A stretch of 64,000 bases of DNA from Daucus carota subsp. sativus (Eukaryota > Streptophyta > Magnoliopsida > Apiales > Apiaceae): positions 31,484,527 to 31,548,526 of the forward strand of contig NC_030384.2 of assembly GCF_001625215.2 (NCBI RefSeq). Direction: 5' to 3'. Numbering within the stretch: the stretch's first letter is position 1; each line of letters opens with the position of its first letter. Positions 1 to 54,768 of the stretch are shown here, one piece after another. A model generated the notes under the pieces. The model saw only the letters and a program-made list of their open reading frames with translations. It had not been told where the DNA came from and did no database searches. The translations under genes and the position numbers were made by a program.

Positions 1-302
1 GTGCTGTTTTATCCTGGGAGCGATATTGCGACTACCCATCACAGCGTAGTGGGGCAATAATCACTTCAAGAACAGTCTAGTCTTCATCGAAGGGCTAGGC
101 GACTCAGCTGTTCTGTATACTAATTCTAGCGACGGTGTAAGGTGCGCCTTTCTCTTCTTTTCTTGTAATTTATCAGTCACTGATTATTGTATATACGATC
201 TTCGTGCATGCTATATTGTTGTGGTTTCGTTGGCCTACACTTGTTTATATAATATAACTGCTCTATACATTGTTGCTGTGATTTTCACTGTGACTCCCAA
301 CA
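1..302 (+). repeat. 5' LTR, right-hand part
   Basis: Bases 1-302 match 5657-5958 without any difference and end in the terminal CA at 301-302. Only the downstream end of the 976-bp LTR is inside the window. Positions 57-72 are the exact reverse complement of the bases just downstream of this LTR (303-318). Confidence 0.97.
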
Positions 303-318
303 TTCTTGAAGTGATTAT
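303..318 (+). promoter_or_regulatory. Primer-binding site, self-complementary to the LTR
   Basis: The minus-strand primer site should start directly after the LTR. The sequence TTCTTGAAGTGATTAT is not the tRNA-iMet complement (TGGTATCAGAGC) used by many plant copia elements. It pairs perfectly over 16 bases with LTR positions 57-72 (5713-5728 in the 3' LTR). The pairing starts at the first base after the LTR and stops cleanly at both ends. That it is the primer site follows from its position; the priming mechanism is inference. Confidence 0.7.
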
Positions 319-342
319 CTGTTATATTGTGTAGTAAGCAAG

Positions 343-3300
343 ATGGTTAATGAGATTGCGGATTCTGTTGTTGGTGGTGGTGCTGGTTCTGGGTCTGGTG
401 TTACTAGTAACATCGATTGGACTACGTATCGTTTTCCACAGCCCATTGATTTATCAGGTATTCCTGATAAATTCGGTGGGGGAGTTTCTTTTTCTCGTTG
501 GCAGAAAAAGATGAAACTGTGGCTTACGGTTAAGGGTCTATGGCCGGTGTTGCAGTATGAGAAACCAGTTGTGGTACAGGAAAAGGCTGAAACCCTTAAG
601 GCCTATGCTATGTGGGAGGAAAAGGATGGGGTGGCTAGGGCTGCTATTCTAGCAGCCTTAACGAACACTCTGTTCGATGTTTACTCATCTGACTCCTACA
701 CTGCTAAGACCTTGTGGGAGAAACTTGATCAGACACACAATACTGACTCGCAAGGGTTGGAAAAGTATTCTGTGGCTAAGTTCCTGGACTTCAAACTGGT
801 GGATACAAAATCCATGACTGAGCAGGTGCATGAGTTTGAGACGTTGGTGCATGCTTTGAAGGAGTCCGGAATGGACCTTCCTGAAAAGTTTTTGGTTATG
901 TCTGTGATTGAAAAACTCCCTAAGTCTTGGGAAGAGTTTGCACTCTCCCTGAAAAGGCAGAAGGGAGAGATCACTTGGACTAGCCTGATGCTGGATATCT
1001 CTGTGCAGGAGCAGCACAAGTCCAAACAGGGACATGTGATGCCAACTGAATCTGGTAGCTCGAAGGTCAATGTAGTGACTGTGGGACAGAAAAGAAAGTC
1101 TGTCGCTAAGAAGGTGAACACTAAGCCCAAAACTGACAAGGGCAAGGCTAAGAAATCAAAGGCCAACAAACCATGTTGGTCTTGTGGACAGGTTGGTCAT
1201 TGGAGTAAGGACTGTCCTGTAAAGAAAGCAAAGAAAGCTGAGGTGGTAGCACAAGCAAATACTGTGCTTGGAACCACTGATGGGCCTGTGCTTAACATGG
1301 TTGTTGGTGAGGCTGTTGCTTCTGAAACCAATGACGGGTATGTTAAGTACAACCCTGAACTATTTTCCACTTATCTGTCTAATGAGTGGTTGATTGATAC
1401 GGGAGCTAATGTGCACATTTGTGCTGATATTACTCTGTTTGTATCTTATCAACAGGCTCATGGGATGACAGTGACGATGGGGAATGCTAGTGCGGCTCAA
1501 GTTCGTGGAATAGGAAACGTGGACCTGAAGTTTGCTTCAGGGCGTGTTCTATCCCTTACTAGAGTGCATCATGTTCCCGAGATTCGTAGAAATATTATTA
1601 GTGGAAGTTGTTTAGTTAAAAATGGCTTTGAACTTTCTTTAAAGTGTAATAAAGTAGTTATTACTCAGACTGGTGTGTTTTTTGGCAAGGGCTACTTGTC
1701 AGACGGCTTGTTTTTAATAAATGTGGAGCCTGTTTTAGGCGGTTTTATTAATGATATTGCTTCTCCTTCTGTTAATAATATTGAATCATCCGATTTGTGG
1801 CACTCTAGGCTTGGTCATTTAAATTTTGGTGCTCTAAAGAATATGATGAACTTAGAGTTGATTCCAAAGCATGCCATTGATAAGACTAAATGTCAAGTAT
1901 GTGTGACAGCTAAACTAACAAGGAAACCTTTTCATAGTGTGGTTAGGGATTCTGACTTGTTAGATTTAGTGCACTCGGACATATGTGAATTTGGTGGTGT
2001 GTTGACTAAGGAACACTGTAGATATTTCATTACCTTTATAGATGATTGTAGTAGATATTGTTATGTTTATTTTCTTAAACATAAAGATGAAGCACTTGAA
2101 AAATTCATTAGATTTAAAACTGAAGTTGAAACACAAACTGGTAAAGTACTTAAACGTTTGAGATCTGATAGAGGTGGTGAATATACGGGAAACACCTTTA
2201 ATGAATTTTGCAAGAGCAATGGTATAATTCATGAGGTGACTCCACCATATACACCTGAGTCTAATGGGGTGGCAGAACGAAAGAACAGAACTTTTAAAGA
2301 TATGATTAACAGTATGTTGATTAATTCGGGGTTGCCCAAGTACATGTGGGGGGAGGCTCTGAATACGGCTTGCCATATTCTGAATAGAGTCCCTCTGAAA
2401 CATATGGACAAGACACCTTACGAATTATGGAAAGGCAGGAAAACTAGTCTAAAGTATCTTCGTGTGTGGGGGTGCCTTGCGAAGGTACTTGTCCCTGAAC
2501 ACAAGAGAAAGAAACTAGGGCCGAAAACTGTTGATTGTATCTTTCTGGGCTATCTCGAAACCACTACAGCTATGAGATTTTTAGTATTAAAATCTGACAT
2601 AGATGGTATAGTGGCAAACACGATAGTTGAGTTTCGTGATGCAACATTCTTTGAGGATGTCTTCCCTATGAAGACTGGTATACCTCAAAGTTCTTCTAGT
2701 GTTGATCCTACTCACACATCTAGTTCTATTCCCGATCAAGTGGAAAAGATGACAAATGTGGGGGCAGATCCTACTAGTAGCTCTACTCCTAATGAAGTTG
2801 AGGAACCTAGAAGGAGCAAGCGTGCAAAGGTAGTTAAGGACTTTGGAAGTGATTTTATCACTTACAATGTCGAGGACGAACCTTTGACTTTCCGACAAGC
2901 CATGGATTCTTCGGAATCTAGGCACTGGAAAGGCGCTGTGAAGAGTGAAATTGACTCTATTGTTTCTAACGGAACATGGGAGTTGGTTGACCTCCCTCCT
3001 GGGTGTTCTACTATAGGATGTAGGTGGATCTTCAAAAGGAAGATGAAACCAGATGGCTCAATAGATAAGTATAAAGCTAGATTGGTTGCTAAAGGTTTTA
3101 GGCAAAGAGAAGGTATTGACTACTTTGATACATACTCTCCTGTTGCAAGATTGACAACGATCCGAATGCTTGTAGCATTGGCTTCCGTACATGGTCTTAT
3201 CATCCATCAAATGGATGTAAAGACAGCTTTTCTTCATGGTGATCTTGAAGAAGAGATTTATATGGATCAGCCTGAGGGATTTGTTGCATCTGGCAATGAG

Positions 3301-4458
3301 AGCAAAGTATGTAAGTTAGTCAAATCCATCTACGGCTTGAAACAAGCACCTAGAGACTGGCACAAAAAGTTTGATGACACTGTTTTGACTTTTGATTTTA
3401 TAGTTAATGATAATGACAAGTGTGTCTACTATAAGGTTAAAGGAAATGAACATATTGTGTTGTGCTTGTATGTGGATGATATACTACTGTTTGGAACCAA
3501 TATTGAGATTATTAACGAGACAAAGAATTTCTTGAAAAGACACTTTGAAATGAAGGACATGGGTGAGGCGAATGTCATTCTTGGACTCAAGCTGACTCAG
3601 TCAACTGAGGGAATAACCTTGTCACAATCTCATTATATAGAGAAATCTATACTTGAGAAGTATGGTTATTCAAATTGTAGAATTGCTAGTACACCATATG
3701 ATCCTAAAGTTGCTCTTATCAAGAATGCTTCAGGTGTACCTGTGTCTCAGTTAAGATATTCTCAGATTATTGGTAGTTTGCAATATCTTGCTAATGGTAC
3801 TAGACCAGATATAACATATTCTGTGTCTAAGTTAGCAAGATATACAAGCTGTCCAAACAGAACTCATTGGGATGCTCTAGATAGAGTACTTAGATATCTG
3901 AAAGGCACCATATATCTTGGGTTGCACTACAGGAGATATCCGAGTGTGCTTGAGGGATATAGTGATGCAAGTTGGATAGCTAAGAAGTCTGGTTCCAATG
4001 GAGTGACTGGATATCTGTTTACCCTTGCGGGTGGAGCAGTATCCTGGAAGTCGACTAGACAGACTATAGTAACTCGGTCTACGTTTGAGGCCGAGTTGTG
4101 TGCATTGGATGCCACGGGTACGGAGGCTGAATGGTTACATGGACTCATGTCTGTGTTACCTGTAGTAAGTCGTCCGCTACCGGCAATTTCTGTTCATTGT
4201 GATAGCCGTACAACTATCGACAAGATCAGAAGTGTCAAGTATAATGCTAAAACAAAGAGACACATCCAAGTTAGACTTAAGTCTATAAGGGGTTTGGTGT
4301 CTGATCGGACTATTGCTATTGAGTTCATTGGAACTCAAGATAACATAGCTGATCCACTGACTAAAGGGCTTGAGCATGCTGTTGTCCTTAAGTCAAGGTT
4401 GGGGATGGGACTGATAACCCATCATGATTCATCTACAGCGGGAACCCAATACATCTGA
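343..4458 (+). CDS. Ty1/copia gag-pol polyprotein, intact
   Basis: One open frame of 1371 residues encodes all retrotransposition functions. In order: an N-terminal Gag region with a CCHC zinc knuckle (CWSCGQVGHWSKDC, about 278-291); an aspartic protease (DTGA at 352-355); integrase with an HHCC zinc domain (about 485-525) and the catalytic triad D546, D609, E645, with exactly 35 residues between the last two; reverse transcriptase with YVDD at 1043-1046; and RNase H with its first Asp near 1208 (YSDASW) and a C-terminal block ending DNIADPLTKGL. All catalytic residues I could check are present and no frame is broken. The start is the first ATG after the LTR leader, 40 bases past the LTR end. 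Gag and Pol share one frame without a shift, as is usual for plant copia elements. The family call is firm; current activity is not shown. Confidence 0.97.
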   Translation: MVNEIADSVVGGGAGSGSGVTSNIDWTTYRFPQPIDLSGIPDKFGGGVSFSRWQKKMKLWLTVKGLWPVLQYEKPVVVQEKAETLKAYAMWEEKDGVARAAILAALTNTLFDVYSSDSYTAKTLWEKLDQTHNTDSQGLEKYSVAKFLDFKLVDTKSMTEQVHEFETLVHALKESGMDLPEKFLVMSVIEKLPKSWEEFALSLKRQKGEITWTSLMLDISVQEQHKSKQGHVMPTESGSSKVNVVTVGQKRKSVAKKVNTKPKTDKGKAKKSKANKPCWSCGQVGHWSKDCPVKKAKKAEVVAQANTVLGTTDGPVLNMVVGEAVASETNDGYVKYNPELFSTYLSNEWLIDTGANVHICADITLFVSYQQAHGMTVTMGNASAAQVRGIGNVDLKFASGRVLSLTRVHHVPEIRRNIISGSCLVKNGFELSLKCNKVVITQTGVFFGKGYLSDGLFLINVEPVLGGFINDIASPSVNNIESSDLWHSRLGHLNFGALKNMMNLELIPKHAIDKTKCQVCVTAKLTRKPFHSVVRDSDLLDLVHSDICEFGGVLTKEHCRYFITFIDDCSRYCYVYFLKHKDEALEKFIRFKTEVETQTGKVLKRLRSDRGGEYTGNTFNEFCKSNGIIHEVTPPYTPESNGVAERKNRTFKDMINSMLINSGLPKYMWGEALNTACHILNRVPLKHMDKTPYELWKGRKTSLKYLRVWGCLAKVLVPEHKRKKLGPKTVDCIFLGYLETTTAMRFLVLKSDIDGIVANTIVEFRDATFFEDVFPMKTGIPQSSSSVDPTHTSSSIPDQVEKMTNVGADPTSSSTPNEVEEPRRSKRAKVVKDFGSDFITYNVEDEPLTFRQAMDSSESRHWKGAVKSEIDSIVSNGTWELVDLPPGCSTIGCRWIFKRKMKPDGSIDKYKARLVAKGFRQREGIDYFDTYSPVARLTTIRMLVALASVHGLIIHQMDVKTAFLHGDLEEEIYMDQPEGFVASGNESKVCKLVKSIYGLKQAPRDWHKKFDDTVLTFDFIVNDNDKCVYYKVKGNEHIVLCLYVDDILLFGTNIEIINETKNFLKRHFEMKDMGEANVILGLKLTQSTEGITLSQSHYIEKSILEKYGYSNCRIASTPYDPKVALIKNASGVPVSQLRYSQIIGSLQYLANGTRPDITYSVSKLARYTSCPNRTHWDALDRVLRYLKGTIYLGLHYRRYPSVLEGYSDASWIAKKSGSNGVTGYLFTLAGGAVSWKSTRQTIVTRSTFEAELCALDATGTEAEWLHGLMSVLPVVSRPLPAISVHCDSRTTIDKIRSVKYNAKTKRHIQVRLKSIRGLVSDRTIAIEFIGTQDNIADPLTKGLEHAVVLKSRLGMGLITHHDSSTAGTQYI

Positions 4459-4982
4459 GAGGAGATCCCTCAAAGTGTATTCAATGTGGTAAACAAGCTG
4501 TAAGGGTGGATCGGTAGTACCTTTAACTACAATATAGATACTTATGCATCTGAGTCTATCCCCTGCAAACCTAAAAGGTACTGACACTGCAAGTATAGCA
4601 AGAGTTTTTAGAACTCTGAATGGGGTCAAGTCATTTGACGAGATGGTTGCAGTACATCTCTGGAGATGCCCAGCTAAGCGAATGTAATTGTGAGGTCGCA
4701 ATTAGAGGAAAGGGTTATTCCTTGAAACATTCGACGAACAGGATCGAGACACGACCATTAATGTCTCAAAGCCGTAGATCGGCACCATAGCCTTTGACTT
4801 GTCGTCGTCTATGGAGTGTGGTTACACCCAACGGATAGAGATTCAAGGTGAAACAATCCATCTATATCCGGTAGCCATCGAAGTAGGGGACTTAGGAGGG
4901 TTCAAACCCGGAAGGGTACCTACTCTGAAAAACAAGTCATGATGAGGACTAATATGCATATCTATATGGAATTGTGGGGGAT
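4459..4982 (+). other. Post-pol untranslated spacer and polypurine tract
   Basis: About 515 bases separate the pol stop codon from the 3' LTR. I see no coding domain or envelope-like frame here. The stretch ends with a G-rich purine run (GTGGGGGA, about 4974-4981) directly before the LTR terminal TG at 4983. That is where plus-strand priming is expected. Confidence 0.75.
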
Positions 4983-5116
4983 TGTTAGAAAATGGAAAGT
5001 TTAAAACATATTTTTAATATGTTCTTGATGTAATTTCCGGGACATTTTCTTAGTGAAATCCATTGAGAAATAGAGTTGAATACAGTGGCTTGAAAGAGCT
5101 TGAAATGAGAATGTGA

Positions 5117-5453
5117 TTCATTTAATCTGGACAAATGAATCTGGTCAGTATATCTGATAGATACAGCTTCATTGAATCTGGACAAATGAATCTGGTCAGT
5201 ATCTCTAACAGATTCAGATTCATTGAATGTGGACAAATGAATCTGGTCAGTATATCTGATAGATACAGATTCATTGAACCTGGACAAATGAATCTGGTCA
5301 GTATGTCTGACAGATACAGATTCATTGAACCTGGACAAATGAATCTGGTCAGAATGTCTGACAGATACAGATTCATTGAACCTGGACAAATGAATCTGGT
5401 CAGAATGTCTGACAGATACAGATTCATTGAACCTGGACAAATGAATCTGGACG
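5117..5453 (+). repeat. 51-bp tandem array in U3 of the LTR
   Basis: The anchor GGACAAATGAATCTGG recurs at 5129, 5180, 5231, 5282, 5333, 5384 and 5435 (the last copy ends ...GGAC), always 51 bases apart. Units at the 3' side are the most alike. Each unit contains two palindromes: CAGATTCAT...ATGAATCTG (9-bp arms) and, in the 3' units, GTCAGA...TCTGAC (6-bp arms). The array lies just upstream of the TATA box. Tandem U3 repeats act as enhancers in some plant copia elements such as Tnt1 and Tto1, so an enhancer role is a reasonable inference. Confidence 0.93.
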
Positions 5454-5471
5454 GTGTGTTGGTGCCTTGGC

Positions 5472-5489
5472 CTCACTATAAATAGTGAG
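5472..5489 (+). promoter_or_regulatory. LTR TATA box inside a palindrome
   Basis: TATAAATA lies at 5477-5484. The flanking bases form a perfect inverted repeat, CTCACTAT-AA-ATAGTGAG, centred on the box. Transcription would be expected to start about 30 bases downstream, near 5510. The corresponding site of the 5' LTR is left of the window. Confidence 0.75.
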
Positions 5490-5958
5490 CCTCGACACTT
5501 GAGTTGCAACACGGGAAAAACACAAACACCATTCTCATTCTTCTCTCTTACACTCTCACCATCTACTCCGATATATACACATATACATACTGTTCTCGGG
5601 CGAACTGAGGTGTTGATCGCTGTTGATCGTACTCGTGTCTGTGAGCGGTTCGGTCTGTGCTGTTTTATCCTGGGAGCGATATTGCGACTACCCATCACAG
5701 CGTAGTGGGGCAATAATCACTTCAAGAACAGTCTAGTCTTCATCGAAGGGCTAGGCGACTCAGCTGTTCTGTATACTAATTCTAGCGACGGTGTAAGGTG
5801 CGCCTTTCTCTTCTTTTCTTGTAATTTATCAGTCACTGATTATTGTATATACGATCTTCGTGCATGCTATATTGTTGTGGTTTCGTTGGCCTACACTTGT
5901 TTATATAATATAACTGCTCTATACATTGTTGCTGTGATTTTCACTGTGACTCCCAACA

Positions 5959-7119
5959 ATAAGAATAGGAAAAACTGTAACGGAGTTTCCTAGTTCCGGT
6001 TCACTACTAGACACAAGACATGACATTGGTTACATAGGTGAGAGATGTGCATGGTACAATTTTTAACTTGTTGCATTAAACGAGCACCGTATGTTTCGTG
6101 GAGTTTTATTTATTGGATATTTTGTATTTGTATATACTTTGAACGTTAAATGTTGTTAAATGTTATTTTCCTAATAATTTACTTATTTTCATAGATATAA
6201 TTGTTTATATTTACTAATCATATATAAGTTACTTACATTTATATATTAGAATATATATATGCAAGGTTGCATAAGAAAGTTTTTTATAATGAGGTATGAA
6301 ATCTAATACTATTCTCATAAATTTAAAATTATATTTGATGTGAGCCATTCATTTGAAAATACTATCCAAGTCTCCAACCACTATTATATTCTCCCTACAA
6401 ACTCCGCCCATATTCTCCATACAAACTCCGCCCACCACCCAACAGCAGGCTTTGGTCGCTCTCTAGCCGTCATGCTCCGTCGACCTCCCCGCCCACCTCC
6501 AATCATTCCCACCAAAAATCTTTGACCATGTTATTCCTCCGACTTAACCTTTAATTATGATCACTTCAATTATACGTATTATTTTTCATCATTGTTGAAT
6601 TTCCAATCTTGATCATTATCATCATTATTTTTTTACTTTCCATGTCTTGTATTTTATATTTCATGAAGACTTTCAAAGATACTTAATGATTACGATCAAA
6701 CTCCCTCGATGAGTATCACATGAAAAGTTAAATTTTTGTATATGGTGGTGAATTTTCTTGAAATTTTAGTGATTTATATTTTTTTTACTGTTTTTGTTTA
6801 TTTTCTAGTGATTAGCGGTAAAAATAGTGATTAGTGGTGGCGGTTCGGTGGTTGTGACAATTTTCACTTAGTTGTGTTGATTAAATTTAAATTATATGAT
6901 TTCAGCACAATGTTAGTGAATATGTGGCGTTGGTCTTTAGGCGGCGAAGTATGATGGTTTGTGACGGTTCGCATATGATTATCTTAAATTGCTTCTAATT
7001 TTATGATATGCGAGTGGCGGTCATAAAAAATGATGGTCGGAGGTTGGTAGGAGCTGGCTGTGGAATAATTAATGTTGGACAATACTACCAATATAAGTAA
7101 TACAATCATCGTTATATAT
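5959..7119. other. AT-rich spacer, no gene seen
   Basis: No recognisable coding region. A C-rich patch at about 6395-6520 contains two copies of ACAAACTCCGCCCA 20-odd bases apart and an unsupported 61-codon frame. The rest is AT-rich unique-looking DNA. Confidence 0.5.
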
Positions 7120-8170
7120 ATAGGGACTGTTATACAGCCACTGTTGGATTGGGAACCCCCAAATGTCAGCTGTTGGATGAGAAGAACTCCCAGCAATATT
7201 TCATTGCGGGGACTTAAGTAAGTCACCGTTGAATAGGGAACCACCAAATTTCAGCCGTTGGATGAGAAGAACTCCCTGCAATGTTTCATTGCGAGGACTT
7301 AAGTACCCGCGATAAAACATGACGGAAACTATTATACCCGTAATGAGACATAGTGGGGACTATTATACCCATAATGAGACATTGCATTGAACACTAAAGG
7401 ATTTTAGCTATTATATCTTATCCAAACTGCCCTTCCACAACTTTTACTTTAGTTAATATTTTTACTTTCATTTTTTTTAAATATTCAATTATCTTCATTA
7501 AATGAAGATAGATATTAAAATTAAAAGATATGTAACTTTTTTCAAATGAATGAATTTATCTATTATATTATTCATACTAAAATAAATTATATCACTAGAA
7601 TGTTTAAAAATATTAACATATTTTTTTGACAGAAAAGGTATTAAAATATTTATTTATTGCGGTACACAAAAATATCCATCCCCGCAATGTATCATTGCGG
7701 GTACACCAAAATATCGTTAAACCTCATGCACAGCTAAAGAACCTACTGCCCAGCTAAAGTACACCGCAATGAATCATTGTAGGTACTATTCATCCCCGCA
7801 ATGTTTCATTGCAGAATATTATTCAATCCCGCAATGTATCATGATCACTAAAAGAACTGATCGAAATTATCATGATTACTACAAGAGTTAAAATCATTAT
7901 CAAATAAATATGCCGTAATATGGTAAAGAGGAGTACCTTTTTTTTATCTTCAAAACGTTCAAAATCAAAGAATGAAATGGGTGACGAAGATGGAGTAATT
8001 TTGATGCGGGGACTTATATACCCGCAATTTTTCATTGCGGGGATGCAATATTTCTTTGCGGAAAGTTTTTTTTCAACCGTAGGATCACAGCAATGGGTGT
8101 ATATAATTTGGTGGCTGAAAACCGGTCCTATCCACTTGTGGCTGTGGACCGGTTTCATATGTGTGTGTGT
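7120..8170. repeat. Palindromic CCGCAATG repeat region, possible non-autonomous element
   Basis: Two degenerate 84-bp direct copies lie at about 7139-7222 and 7223-7307; both contain GTTGGATGAGAAGAACTCCC. Variants of CCGCAATG-n3-CATTGCGG recur near 7190, 7275, 7681, 7763, 7794, 7828 and 8021. The copy at 7681-7701 has perfect 9-bp arms. GTGGCTG blocks near the right end resemble the inverted left end. I could not fix termini or a target duplication, so element class is open. Confidence 0.5.
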
Positions 8171-47877: not shown

Positions 47878-48717
47878 ATGGCAGGTAACCAAGCAGCAGT
47901 CATCTCTCTCCTCACCAAGATGGGCCAGGCCGCCTTCGGCCTCGGCCTCGCCGCCACCGCCGTCAACTCCTCCCTCTACACCGTCGATGGCGGGCAACGT
48001 GCCGTCCTGATGGACCGCATTCGCGGTGTTCTCGACAAGCCCGTCGGCGAAGGCACTCACTTCCTCATCCCCTTCCTTCAAACCCCTAATATATTCGATA
48101 TACGCACCAAACCCCACACATTTTCCTCCGTCTCCGGTACCAAAGACCTCCAGATGGTCAATCTGACTCTTCGGGTCTTATCGAGACCCGAAGAGTCCAA
48201 ATTACCCGTTATTTATAAGGAATTAGGCACCGAGTATGATGAAAAAGTGCTTCCTTCTATCGGGAATGAGATTTTGAAGTCTGTTGTTGCCCAATTCAAT
48301 GCTGATCAGTTGTTGACCGAGAGGCCTAAAGTGTCTGCCCTTGTGCGCGATAGTTTGACTACCCGGGCTAAGGATTTCAACATTCTGCTCGATGATGTGG
48401 CGATCACCCATTTGTCGTATGGTAATGAGTTTTCCAGGGCTGTTGAGCAGAAACAGGTGGCCCAGCAGGAGGCCGAGAGGTCTAAGTATGTCGTGGCCAA
48501 AGCGGATCAGGAGCGGAGGGCTGCAATTATTAGGGCTGAAGGGGAGAGTGAGTCGGCTAAGTTGATTTCTGATGCCACGAAGAGTAGTGGCATGGGTTTG
48601 ATTGAGCTCAGGAAGATTGAGGCCCAGAGGGAGATTGCGGCGACTATGGCCAGGAATTCCGGTGTTTCTTACTTGCCTGATGGGAACAGCAATTTGCTTC
48701 TTGGACTTAGTCGTTGA
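47878..48717 (+). CDS. PHB3: Prohibitin, type I (PHB3/PHB4-like), mitochondrial
   Basis: A single uninterrupted frame of 279 residues. It has an N-terminal hydrophobic anchor (about 15-32, [19 protein letters not shown]), the SPFH/PHB domain (about 35-195; [37 protein letters not shown]) and an Ala/Glu/Lys-rich coiled coil (about 190-250; [20 protein letters not shown]). Prohibitins form ring complexes of type I and II subunits in the mitochondrial inner membrane that scaffold and protect membrane proteins. The lack of a long N-terminal extension and the LLLGLSR end fit plant type I; whether it is PHB3 or PHB4 cannot be decided. The start is the only ATG before the conserved MGQAAFGLG block. 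The first 200 bases are much richer in C and G than the rest of the gene. The coding part has no intron. Confidence 0.96.
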
Positions 48718-51897: not shown

Positions 51898-54768
51898 TTA
51901 AGCATCATTTATCATATCTGGCATTTGTGTTGCTACCAGTTTCTCTATGATCCGCTTTAATGCAGGTGCACTCGCTCTACACTTGCTATCCGAAAAGCAG
52001 GACCTGCCTTCCTCTGCTGCTTTACACAACTGAGGGTCTAATGGTACCTTGCCAAGAAAAGGTACACCCATGTCTACACACATTTTTTTAGCACCACCAC
52101 CACTGCTGTCGAACACTTCACTGCAAGCAACCAAATTCAGAAGTTCCGGTGCTCTCTCTTTTATGAGATTTATTGCCCACTCTGTCACGTCTACTTCTTC
52201 ACCTATAGTTGACATCCGTGCAAATTTGAAATCTGGAACCGACTGAGACAATCCACTCATATTTTCAACTACCCCTAGAACTTTTATTCCAACTTTCTTG
52301 CAGAAACTAACCTCTTTCCTGACATCTATCAGGGAGACCTGTTGTGGCGTAGTGACTATTATAGCACCATCGATTCCTGTTTCTTGAAGGAACTGAACAA
52401 TTGATATATGTTCATCTGAAGTCCCTGGTGGAGCATCAACTACCAGGAAATCAAGCTCCCCCCAGTAGACGTCCTTCAGGAATTGCTTGATGATTCCGTT
52501 TTTGCGAGGGCCTCTCCATATGACAGCATCATCTGGATTGGGGAGCATGAACCCAATTGACATGACACCGAGATTGGACTCCACATAGACAGGAGACCAT
52601 CCAAGATTACTCTGGTGAATCTCTTGGCCTTCAAGGCCAAGCATTTTGGGAATGCTTGGACCACATATATCAATATCAAGGAGACCCACTTGAAAGTCCA
52701 TAGCTGCCAGTGCATATGAAAGTTGAGCAGAGAATGTGCTCTTGCCAACCCCACCCTTTCCAGATAACACTAGTATCTTGTGTTTTACAGTAGCCATTCT
52801 TTCTGCAATTGCAACCAAATCTGCGAAACAAATTCAGCAGTAAAATGAGATTGTAGCATTAACAATGGGCAAGTAAATCTTCAACTAGAATACCACTTTT
52901 AAGGAAATAGTAATCACAAGACACTAAATTTTACTTTTATAATTAAACTTAGTTGCATGAATCAACTGTGAAAGGTTACCTATACATATTACACAATGCT
53001 CATCAACTATTACAAATTTTGAATAAAATACTAAATATCAAAGGCACGTCAAGAAACTATAATAGCATAAACCATCCTCTGAAATGTTTCATGAAAAAAT
53101 TATTGTCATAGATCATCTATCAATATTTTGCCTAGCAGTTGAAGCCTTCATAGCTACTAGAAGGCAATGCAGCCATTAAAAAAGGTTATATAAGAACCCG
53201 TCGCTCTACTTTCTTTTAGTGGGCAACAAAAACAAAAAGAGATTGTTTTGAAAGTGAACTACTTCAGGGTGATCTTTCCAGGAAAGAAAGAACTATAACA
53301 AATTTTACATATTAAAGAAGTTGTGAACACCAATATGCCACAATACTAGAGGCCAGAGGGAGGCACCAAATTCGACATCCAGATGAAATACACGTATGGA
53401 AAATCATCCTGGTAGAGAGTAAACAAATATTGCACGAGAATAGGCCTATTTAATCTGTGTTGGGAGATTTGCATCTCATAAAAGAATTTTATAAAATAAT
53501 ATTATACACAAGTCCCACAATAAGAACCCTGTGTTTTTCTGTAAACATATTGAATTGGGATAGTTTGGCGAGGGGTGGCAATATCAGACACGACCCGAAA
53601 CCCGACACGAACCCGACCCAACCCGAAACCCGATTTACTGAGACAGAAACCCGAAAGTGACCCGAAAATCACCAGATTGACCCGAAATGGACCCGAAATG
53701 AGAATTTCATTTCTAATAACTTCAATTTTCAGTTTTATTCAATTTCAAGTGATTTTAGCTTGACCCGAAATCGACCCGATTGCTGCAAAGAGGGCTATAA
53801 CCAGAGGGGGCTGTTCTGGCATGCCAAAAGGGAACAACCCTTGTCCCTACTGAAAGAACCACAATTTGCCACAATGGCTTCTATTTATTCTAGTGTGGTT
53901 GGATTCTGGTCGAGTAAATCTAGTGCAATCTCTGTTCAAGCACTCTCTCTTGTATGAAGTTAAAGCATTACTCGAAAGAAAAGACATGAGAATGTACATA
54001 TATGTATACATACACAAAAAAACTAAGAGACTGTGAGCTAGATGATTCTTCATCTTTAAAACTTATAAAAGCATATTAACAGATATGCCCCATCAAGCTC
54101 TTCAGACTGAGAAGGGGCCATAACTAATATCATGAAATTTAAGTACCATAGGTGCACCAAATCTCAGAAGGTTATCTCCAATAAATTTGTGAGGCAGTAA
54201 GTAATAATCCAGTACTGCAGTGCTAACAAGGAGGTTATTTCCAATTGTGAAATCCTATGCTTTGAGTCCTGCAGAGGATGGGTGCAGCAGGCTAGGGATA
54301 TTTAACTCGACTGATATTCACATAATAGCATGATTTGAATATTAGGCCACGTCTCAAGGTTTCGGAACAGCCATATAACTAAAAATGAGATCAAAAAACA
54401 TTTGAGTCATTACTTGAAATGATCTTAGATGACAATATCCTCAAATTACTTAATTTGGACACTACTTAAGTATTGCCTCATAGATGAGCAACTAGTGATC
54501 GACCCCCAAAATAAGTTTCAGAGAACATATTAACAAGCAAGCAAAATATACATAATTAGTTAATTACTACATTAGCACACAACAACAATTGGAACTAGTA
54601 ACAACAATAATTAATATACCTCTTAAGCTTTTAGGTGAACTAGTAACTTAACAATTGGACTCGAGCTGCTTTAAATGCAAAAACATCAACACACACAAAT
54701 ATACATATACAGGCAAGGGCAAGTTAATAGGGGGGGGGGGGGGGGGGGGGGGGGAGAGCGAGCGAGCG

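What the first reader, a model, noticed from the sequence alone, without database searches (positions are those of the whole stretch)
57..318. Copia primer-binding site is a perfect 16-nt complement of its own LTR: candidate self-priming
Seen: bases 303-318, exactly abutting the 5' LTR, are the reverse complement of 57-72 inside the LTR. The pairing begins at the first post-LTR base and no tRNA-iMet complement is present. Known: the fission yeast element Tf1 primes reverse transcription from its own mRNA, and Drosophila copia uses an internal tRNA fragment. Inference: the transcript folds so that nucleotides 57-72 pair with the primer site around a loop of about 230 nt, and cleavage after position 72 gives the primer. 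This differs from Tf1, since the TATA box puts the segment about 200 nt inside the leader rather than at the mRNA 5' end.
Basis: partly seen in the sequence, partly recalled or inferred. Interest (0 to 1): 0.8.

Follow-up and report, generated by a model that had tools for sequence, protein, structure and literature searches.

The report
Plant retrotransposon that primes itself
A young plant jumping gene most likely starts copying its RNA into DNA from a piece of its own RNA instead of a cell tRNA; this was already predicted for one group of plant elements, and sister families in this genome now back it with matching double changes.

Summary
A Ty1/copia element (LTRs 976/976 identical, 5-bp TSD ATAAG, one 1371-aa ORF) has a 16-nt post-LTR sequence exactly complementary to its own LTR. 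The LTR-abutting base is private to this copy: 29 of 30 family copies have A at 303, so the shared design is a 1-nt spacer plus 15-16 paired bases.

Related families whose LTR ends are 55-66% identical carry different PBSs, each fitting its own LTR. Five PBS types pair 16/16 with their own LTR and 12-15/16 with each other's. In 13 aligned sequences, 5 of 16 primer:PBS pairs changed on both sides. A covarying 10-bp hairpin starts 3 nt after the predicted primer 3' end. One conserved host tRNA cannot explain this.

Self-priming is the best explanation, but not a new idea: Neumann et al. 2019 predicted it for the TAR lineage of plant Ty1/copia. New here, as far as I read: covariation, hairpin, TATA-anchored internal position. 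TAR membership and the cleavage chemistry were not tested.

The parts
1..302 (+). 5' LTR, cut by the window start (LTR positions 675-976)
   Evidence: 0 mismatches to 5657-5958; whole 5' LTR in L001, 976/976 identical to the 3' LTR
56..71 (+). putative self-primer, 5' LTR copy (AATAATCACTTCAAGA; given as 57-72 in the finding)
   Evidence: 15 of 16 complementary to 304-319; 16 of 16 if 57-72 is paired with 303-318; covaries between families
75..100 (+). conserved 10-bp hairpin beginning 3 nt after the predicted primer 3' end
   Evidence: 3 of 10 pairs with changes on both sides, 96.9% of cells paired, 13 sequences
101..110 (+). nearly invariant GACTCAGCTG after the hairpin
   Evidence: alignments A1 and A2
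303..303 (+). spacer base between LTR and PBS; T here, A in 29 of 30 family copies
304..318 (+). primer-binding site of the family (303-318 in this copy)
343..4458 (+). gag-pol ORF, 1371 aa, order gag, zinc knuckle, integrase, reverse transcriptase (Ty1/copia order)
4974..4982 (+). G-rich polypurine-tract-like run before the 3' LTR
   Evidence: read from the sequence
4983..5958 (+). 3' LTR (976 bp, TG...CA)
5477..5483 (+). TATA box (TATAAAT) in the LTR, about 235 nt upstream of the primer segment
   Evidence: LTR position 495; aligned with TATAAAT of families C and C'
5712..5727 (+). 3' LTR copy of the putative self-primer
   Evidence: pair I25, 5713-5728
5959..5963 (+). target-site duplication ATAAG (also directly before the 5' LTR in L001)

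Best explanation
The element starts minus-strand DNA synthesis from a 15-16 nt segment of its own transcript. Shown: the LTR segment 56-71 is complementary to the PBS that follows the LTR after one spacer base, and the two co-vary between families; a conserved hairpin sits 3 nt 3' of the segment. Inferred: in the particle RNA the segment pairs with the PBS around a loop of about 230 nt; a nuclease, most likely the element's own RNase H as in Tf1, cuts after ...TTCAAGA; reverse transcriptase extends that 3' end across the spacer into U5 and R. Plus-strand copying of the primer then rewrites the PBS from the LTR each cycle, which would keep the two in step. If the 5' copy is used, the cut also ends the template at base 72, so the first DNA can reach only about 230 nt, and R must extend past the primer (poly(A) site downstream of 5728) for the first strand transfer. 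Use of the 3' LTR copy or of a second RNA in the particle is not excluded.
For: 16-nt exact complement flush with the LTR end. In 30 of 30 close family copies the LTR segment 57-72 and PBS 304-317 are unchanged. Among 76 further loci (L051-L126) 49 pair at 13-16 of 16, 36 of them 16/16; the other 27 reach only 8-12. PBSs of the 49 against the 27 unrelated upstreams: 1323 comparisons, 14 once, 13 in 25, the rest lower. Five PBS types: 16/16 with own LTR, 12-15 with the others'. Two-sided changes in 5 of 16 primer:PBS pairs and 3 of 10 hairpin pairs; covariation score 0.275 against 0.117 +/- 0.015 in shuffles (0 of 500 as high) and at most 0.046 in slid registers. Predicted helix probability 0.74-0.93 in 5 of 6 leaders of 486 nt. 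Precedent: TAR lineage predicted to self-prime.
Against: No experiment; no mapped 5' end of strong-stop DNA, transcript start or poly(A) site. One family-B leader (L051) folds without the helix (P 0.01); in shorter pieces of 304-309 nt the six values are 0.93, 0.92, 0.00, 0.79, 0.41, 0.89. The window piece 40-342 is only modestly more stable than shuffles (z -1.96; 5 of 100 as stable). Seven of 16 helix pairs never vary and say nothing, and the number of further pair types is no higher than in shuffles (14 against 13.6; 262 of 500 as high). L115 has the family-D PBS but only 9/16 upstream, L074 and L081 have PBS-like sites without partner, L093 has 13/16, which 26 of 1323 controls reach, and L120 has 15/16 but lacks the hairpin context. 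The window family's own 16th pair (C319 against A56) is mismatched. Covariation shows selected or copied pairing, not priming itself. A tRNA-primed control family from the same genome could not be fetched, and the host tRNA set was not listed.
Confidence: 0.82

Rival explanations
1. A host tRNA, half-tRNA or other small host RNA primes, and the LTR copy of its sequence is incidental.
For: Other Ty1/copia lineages use tRNA-Met, half-tRNA-Met or half-tRNA-Ile (PMC6317226 passages). A full host tRNA list was not searched.
Against: No TGG between LTR and gag ATG. The PBS differs between five types and each fits its own LTR; one conserved host RNA cannot follow that. The 15-mer primer not preceded by A occurs 32 times in the genome; 31 places lie at the PBS of family copies and one at the PBS of L044. 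Places preceded by A, which include the LTRs, were not examined. ARAGORN found no tRNA in the window.
Confidence: 0.05
2. The pairing is a regulatory or packaging structure (PBS masking, RNA dimer, circularised leader) and the true primer is something else.
For: Covariation and folding support pairing as such; retroviral leaders hold comparable long-range helices (recalled).
Against: The helix starts 1 nt after the LTR end in each of the families aligned, where a primer must sit, and no tRNA-type PBS is present in the window element. The end of the LTR is set by the primer 3' end, so its fixed offset is what priming predicts.
Confidence: 0.1
3. Self-priming, but with the primer from the 3' LTR copy (5712-5727) or from a second RNA in the particle.
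For: The 3' copy is identical; particles carry two RNAs (PMC12786077 passage). The hairpin is present in both LTR copies (identical LTRs).
Against: Intramolecular folding of the 5' leader is predicted strongly in 5 of 6 cases; Tf1 uses its 5' leader (PMC7175516 passage).
Confidence: 0.25
4. Chance match.
For: None beyond base composition (34% GC).
Against: Next-longest internal complement 10 nt; repeated with changed sequence in sister families.
Confidence: 0.001

Closest known systems
TAR lineage of plant Ty1/copia elements (Houba, Osr-1, Fourf)
   Same: Plant Ty1/copia; no tRNA PBS; at least 10 bp directly after the 5' LTR complementary to a site in the 5' LTR (their search rule allowed a 0-5 bp gap); predicted self-priming (PMC6317226, passages).
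   Different: Lineage membership of this element not tested (no labelled TAR sequence at hand). The passages read give no covariation, hairpin or leader position; their supplements were not read.
Tf1/sushi group (Ty3/gypsy, fission yeast and others)
   Same: Self-primer in the 5' LTR part of the mRNA pairs with the PBS; additional duplexes near it (PMC10085805 and PMC7175516 passages).
   Different: Tf1 primer is the first 11 nt of the mRNA with the cut between 11 and 12; here about 190-205 nt inside a TATA-predicted leader, 15-16 nt long, other superfamily. Tf1's extra duplexes join PBS-adjacent sequence to the LTR; here the extra element seen is a local hairpin.
Half-tRNA users: Osser, Bryco, part of Gymco-II, Bianca (PMC6317226 passages); Drosophila copia (recalled)
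   Same: Ty1/copia with a non-standard primer.
   Different: Primer is a host tRNA fragment and not encoded in the LTR.
Fungal GalEa Conserved Hairpin Site
   Same: Ty1/copia without tRNA PBS, structure at the PBS position (PMC5445492 passages).
   Different: Local palindrome; the authors report no complementary U5 inverted repeat.

Membership tests
Ty1/copia superfamily | gag-integrase-reverse transcriptase order in pol | tested here: met
   Pfam order gag_2, zf-CCHC, gag_pre-integrs, rve, RVT_2
LTR retrotransposon with intact layout | TG...CA LTRs, TSD, open polyprotein | tested here: met
TAR lineage (plant Ty1/copia) | clusters with TAR in RT/RH/INT trees | not testable with these tools
   no labelled TAR reference sequence available
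TAR lineage (plant Ty1/copia) | PBS complementary to own 5' LTR, at least 10 bp, 0-5 bp after the LTR | tested here: met
   16 bp, 0 bp after the LTR in the window; 15-16 bp after 1 bp in relatives
[quoted passage not shown]
   TATA about 235 nt upstream of the segment argues against, but no transcript start is mapped
Tf1-type self-priming | RNase H cut of the RNA duplex frees the primer | not testable with these tools
   needs biochemistry
Self-priming in general | LTR segment and PBS co-vary | tested here: met
tRNA-primed element | TGG plus tRNA 3'-end complement after the LTR | tested here: not met
   no TGG before the gag ATG

The most novel reading that the evidence does not exclude
An internal self-primer: a 15-16 nt segment about 190-205 nt inside the leader, marked by a hairpin 3 nt downstream, is freed from the RNA by the element, and the PBS is rewritten from the LTR each cycle, so that primer and PBS drift together and found new families with private primers. 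This copy's private T303 would then record one cycle primed from a 3' end one base longer (A72).
Probability: 0.4. Interest if true: 0.65.

Novelty: new member of a known kind. Interest (0 to 1): 0.45.

Why it matters
Self-priming in plant Ty1/copia elements rests on sequence prediction in what I read. The covarying families give a stronger, testable case, name the exact primer 3' end (after TTCAAGA), and give families with partly incompatible primers in one genome, in which priming in trans could be told apart from priming in cis. An element that brings its own primer would not depend on, or be targeted through, host tRNA fragments.

Tried and rejected
Close relatives of the polyprotein in viral contigs and genome contigs, one single-protein scan each: none. 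Rfam at gathering threshold on the window: no match. T303 as a templated base: in families C and C' the spacer is T although the LTR base after the primer is G, so the spacer is not generally copied from the LTR; the T303 reading stays a guess. The repeated site CCAACAATCTTGAAAATAGTAGC has no LTR complement; its loci stay in the counts as misses, as do chance sites of the pattern. A tRNA-primed control family and more distant relatives (queries P0016, P0059 and a tRNA-Met PBS pattern) were not obtained: the genome search machine did not answer (P0016; P0059: 81, 84, 86, 89, 91, 93, 95, 97, 99, 101; pattern: 104, 106, 109, 111, 113, 115, 119).

Full report
What it is. The window opens inside the 5' LTR of a Ty1/copia element. 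The 3' LTR is 4983-5958 (976 bp, TG...CA); the full 5' LTR, read in locus L001, is identical in 976 of 976 bases, and both sides carry the 5-bp duplication ATAAG. One ORF, 343-4458, encodes gag, zinc knuckle, integrase and reverse transcriptase in copia order. The genome has 441,086,747 bases in 11 contigs; the nine contigs seen (C1-C9) hold nearly all of it. The best-matching proteins that carry a species name are from Apium graveolens and Sesamum. From recall this fits carrot (nine chromosomes, similar size); no call names it.

Observation. Bases 303-318 are the exact reverse complement of 57-72 and of 5713-5728. Outside this helix no internal stretch of the element has more than 10 nt complementary to the LTR, and same-strand matches also stop at 10. 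There is no TGG between the LTR and the gag ATG.

Correction. Of 30 family copies fetched (the closest matches; 41 matches listed, 40 of 237 candidates scored there), 29 have A, not T, at 303; 3 of 30 differ at 318; the LTR segment is unchanged in all 30. In one search (101 sites, 100 listed) 27 listed sites have the full family PBS after CCAACA and one base: 26 with A, the window alone with T. So the family has one spacer base and 15 pairs (304-318 with 57-71); the sixteenth pair of the finding is private to this copy. Its LTRs are identical, so the change may stem from the last copying cycle, for instance from a primer one base longer; this is a guess, since families C and C' have T spacers that do not match the LTR base after their primer.

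Covariation. A protein search of the host genome (query P0003) and a pattern search led to 76 short loci, L051-L126. They cover the 73 listed sites that do not have the plain family-A PBS, except two already in L001-L030 (L017, L019), plus L051 and four plain family-A sites. For each I took the 16 nt after the spacer and the best ungapped complement in at most 446 nt upstream. 49 of 76 reach 13 or more (36 have 16, 9 have 15, 3 have 14, 1 has 13); 27 of 76 reach 8-12. By inspection, 48 of the 49 are followed by the start of the hairpin described below; L120 is not. The 27 are chance sites of the pattern and one unrelated repeat, but include L115 (PBS of family D, 9/16), L074 and L081, which may be elements that lost their partner. 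The PBSs of the 49 tested on the 27 unrelated upstreams gave 13 in 25 and 14 in 1 of 1323 comparisons, so L093 (13/16) alone proves nothing. Five PBS types have members at 16/16 and match the other types' LTRs at 12-15; the window family itself stands at 15/16 in this register. On six representatives, the LTR ends are 55-66% identical between the groups A/F, B and C/C'/D and 84-94% inside them. Reverse transcriptase pieces from six loci are 85-95% identical to the window's, so these are families of one clade, not distant lineages.

Structure. On 13 aligned sequences (one per type plus diverged copies, chosen by me) the primer:PBS helix has 95.2% of cells paired, 5 of 16 pairs with changes on both sides and 7 that never vary. 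The hairpin at 75-100, 3 nt after the primer, has 96.9% paired and 3 of 10 pairs with two-sided changes. For both together the covariation score is 0.275, against 0.117 +/- 0.015 after shuffling (0 of 500 as high) and at most 0.046 in slid registers; the number of further pair types is not above shuffles (14 against 13.6). An 8-sequence alignment gave the same picture. The hairpin was drawn from the window's fold, which favours the unslid register on cells paired, and related sequences can exceed shuffles without structure. Folding 486-nt leaders predicted the primer:PBS helix with mean probability 0.74-0.93 in 5 of 6, and 0.01 in L051; in pieces of 304-309 nt the values were 0.93, 0.92, 0.00, 0.79, 0.41 and 0.89. 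Window 40-342 folds at -78.2 kcal/mol, z -1.96, with 5 of 100 shuffles as stable.

Place in the transcript. TATAAAT lies 483, 476 and 471 nt before the PBS in families A, C and C'; family B has TATATA at the aligned place. With a start about 30 nt downstream (recalled rule), the primer is about 190-205 nt inside the leader. No transcript end is mapped.

Mechanism. Shown: complementarity, covariation, hairpin, place after the LTR. Inferred: pairing in the particle, a cut after ...TTCAAGA, extension across the spacer, rewriting of the PBS from the primer. A cut in the 5' copy leaves a template that ends at base 72, so R must reach beyond the primer; the conserved TATATAA run 46-58 nt before the PBS could be a poly(A) signal, which is a guess.

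What is known. Neumann et al. 2019 (PMC6317226; passages, outline and part of the reference list seen; supplements not read) predict self-priming for 12% of their plant LTR elements, among Ty1/copia for the TAR lineage including Houba and Osr-1, by a blastn rule of at least 10 bp complementary to the 5' LTR, 0-5 bp after it. Tf1 pairs the first 11 nt of its mRNA with the PBS, cut between 11 and 12 (PMC7175516 passage), within a three-duplex structure (PMC10085805 passage). A 2025 review describes plant elements as primed by tRNA fragments; the term self-prim was not found in its main text (PMC12786077, passages). Six paper searches listed no paper, by title or start of abstract, that tests self-priming of a plant Ty1/copia element by experiment; subscription journals are mostly not held.

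Verdict. Real, very unlikely to be chance, and best read as self-priming; a new member of a predicted kind, with stronger evidence and a sharper anatomy than the passages I read. Membership in TAR is likely but untested.

Noticed in passing
5064-5522: 51-bp tandem repeats in U3 of the LTR; LTR lengths of many family copies step by about 51 bp (about 977, 926, 875, 824, 773), so repeat number varies between young copies.
   Followed up: partly
window 3-17 (LTR 677-691) and the same place in families F, B, C, C' and D: The motif GCTGTTTTATCCTGG upstream of the primer is identical in six representatives whose LTR ends are otherwise as low as 55-66% identical; function unknown, perhaps packaging.
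   Followed up: no
L069, L070, L077, L087, L088, L090, L092, L101, L114, L121: Ten genome sites share CCAACAATCTTGAAAATAGTAGC or close variants but have no upstream complement; an unidentified repeat that looks like an LTR end plus PBS.
   Followed up: no
L017 2344-2454 and L100 (C5:34997651): A second LTR-end-like junction about 640 bp inside one family copy, fused to other sequence.
   Followed up: no
L030 (C6:13136436-13137065): Two LTR-end matches head to tail in one copy, a possible tandem LTR structure.
   Followed up: no
47878-48717 and 51898-52818: Host genes: an SPFH/Band 7 (prohibitin-like) ORF and a NUBPL-type P-loop NTPase ORF.
   Followed up: no
7136-7305: Two 85-bp direct repeats, 88% alike, near the element.
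   Followed up: no
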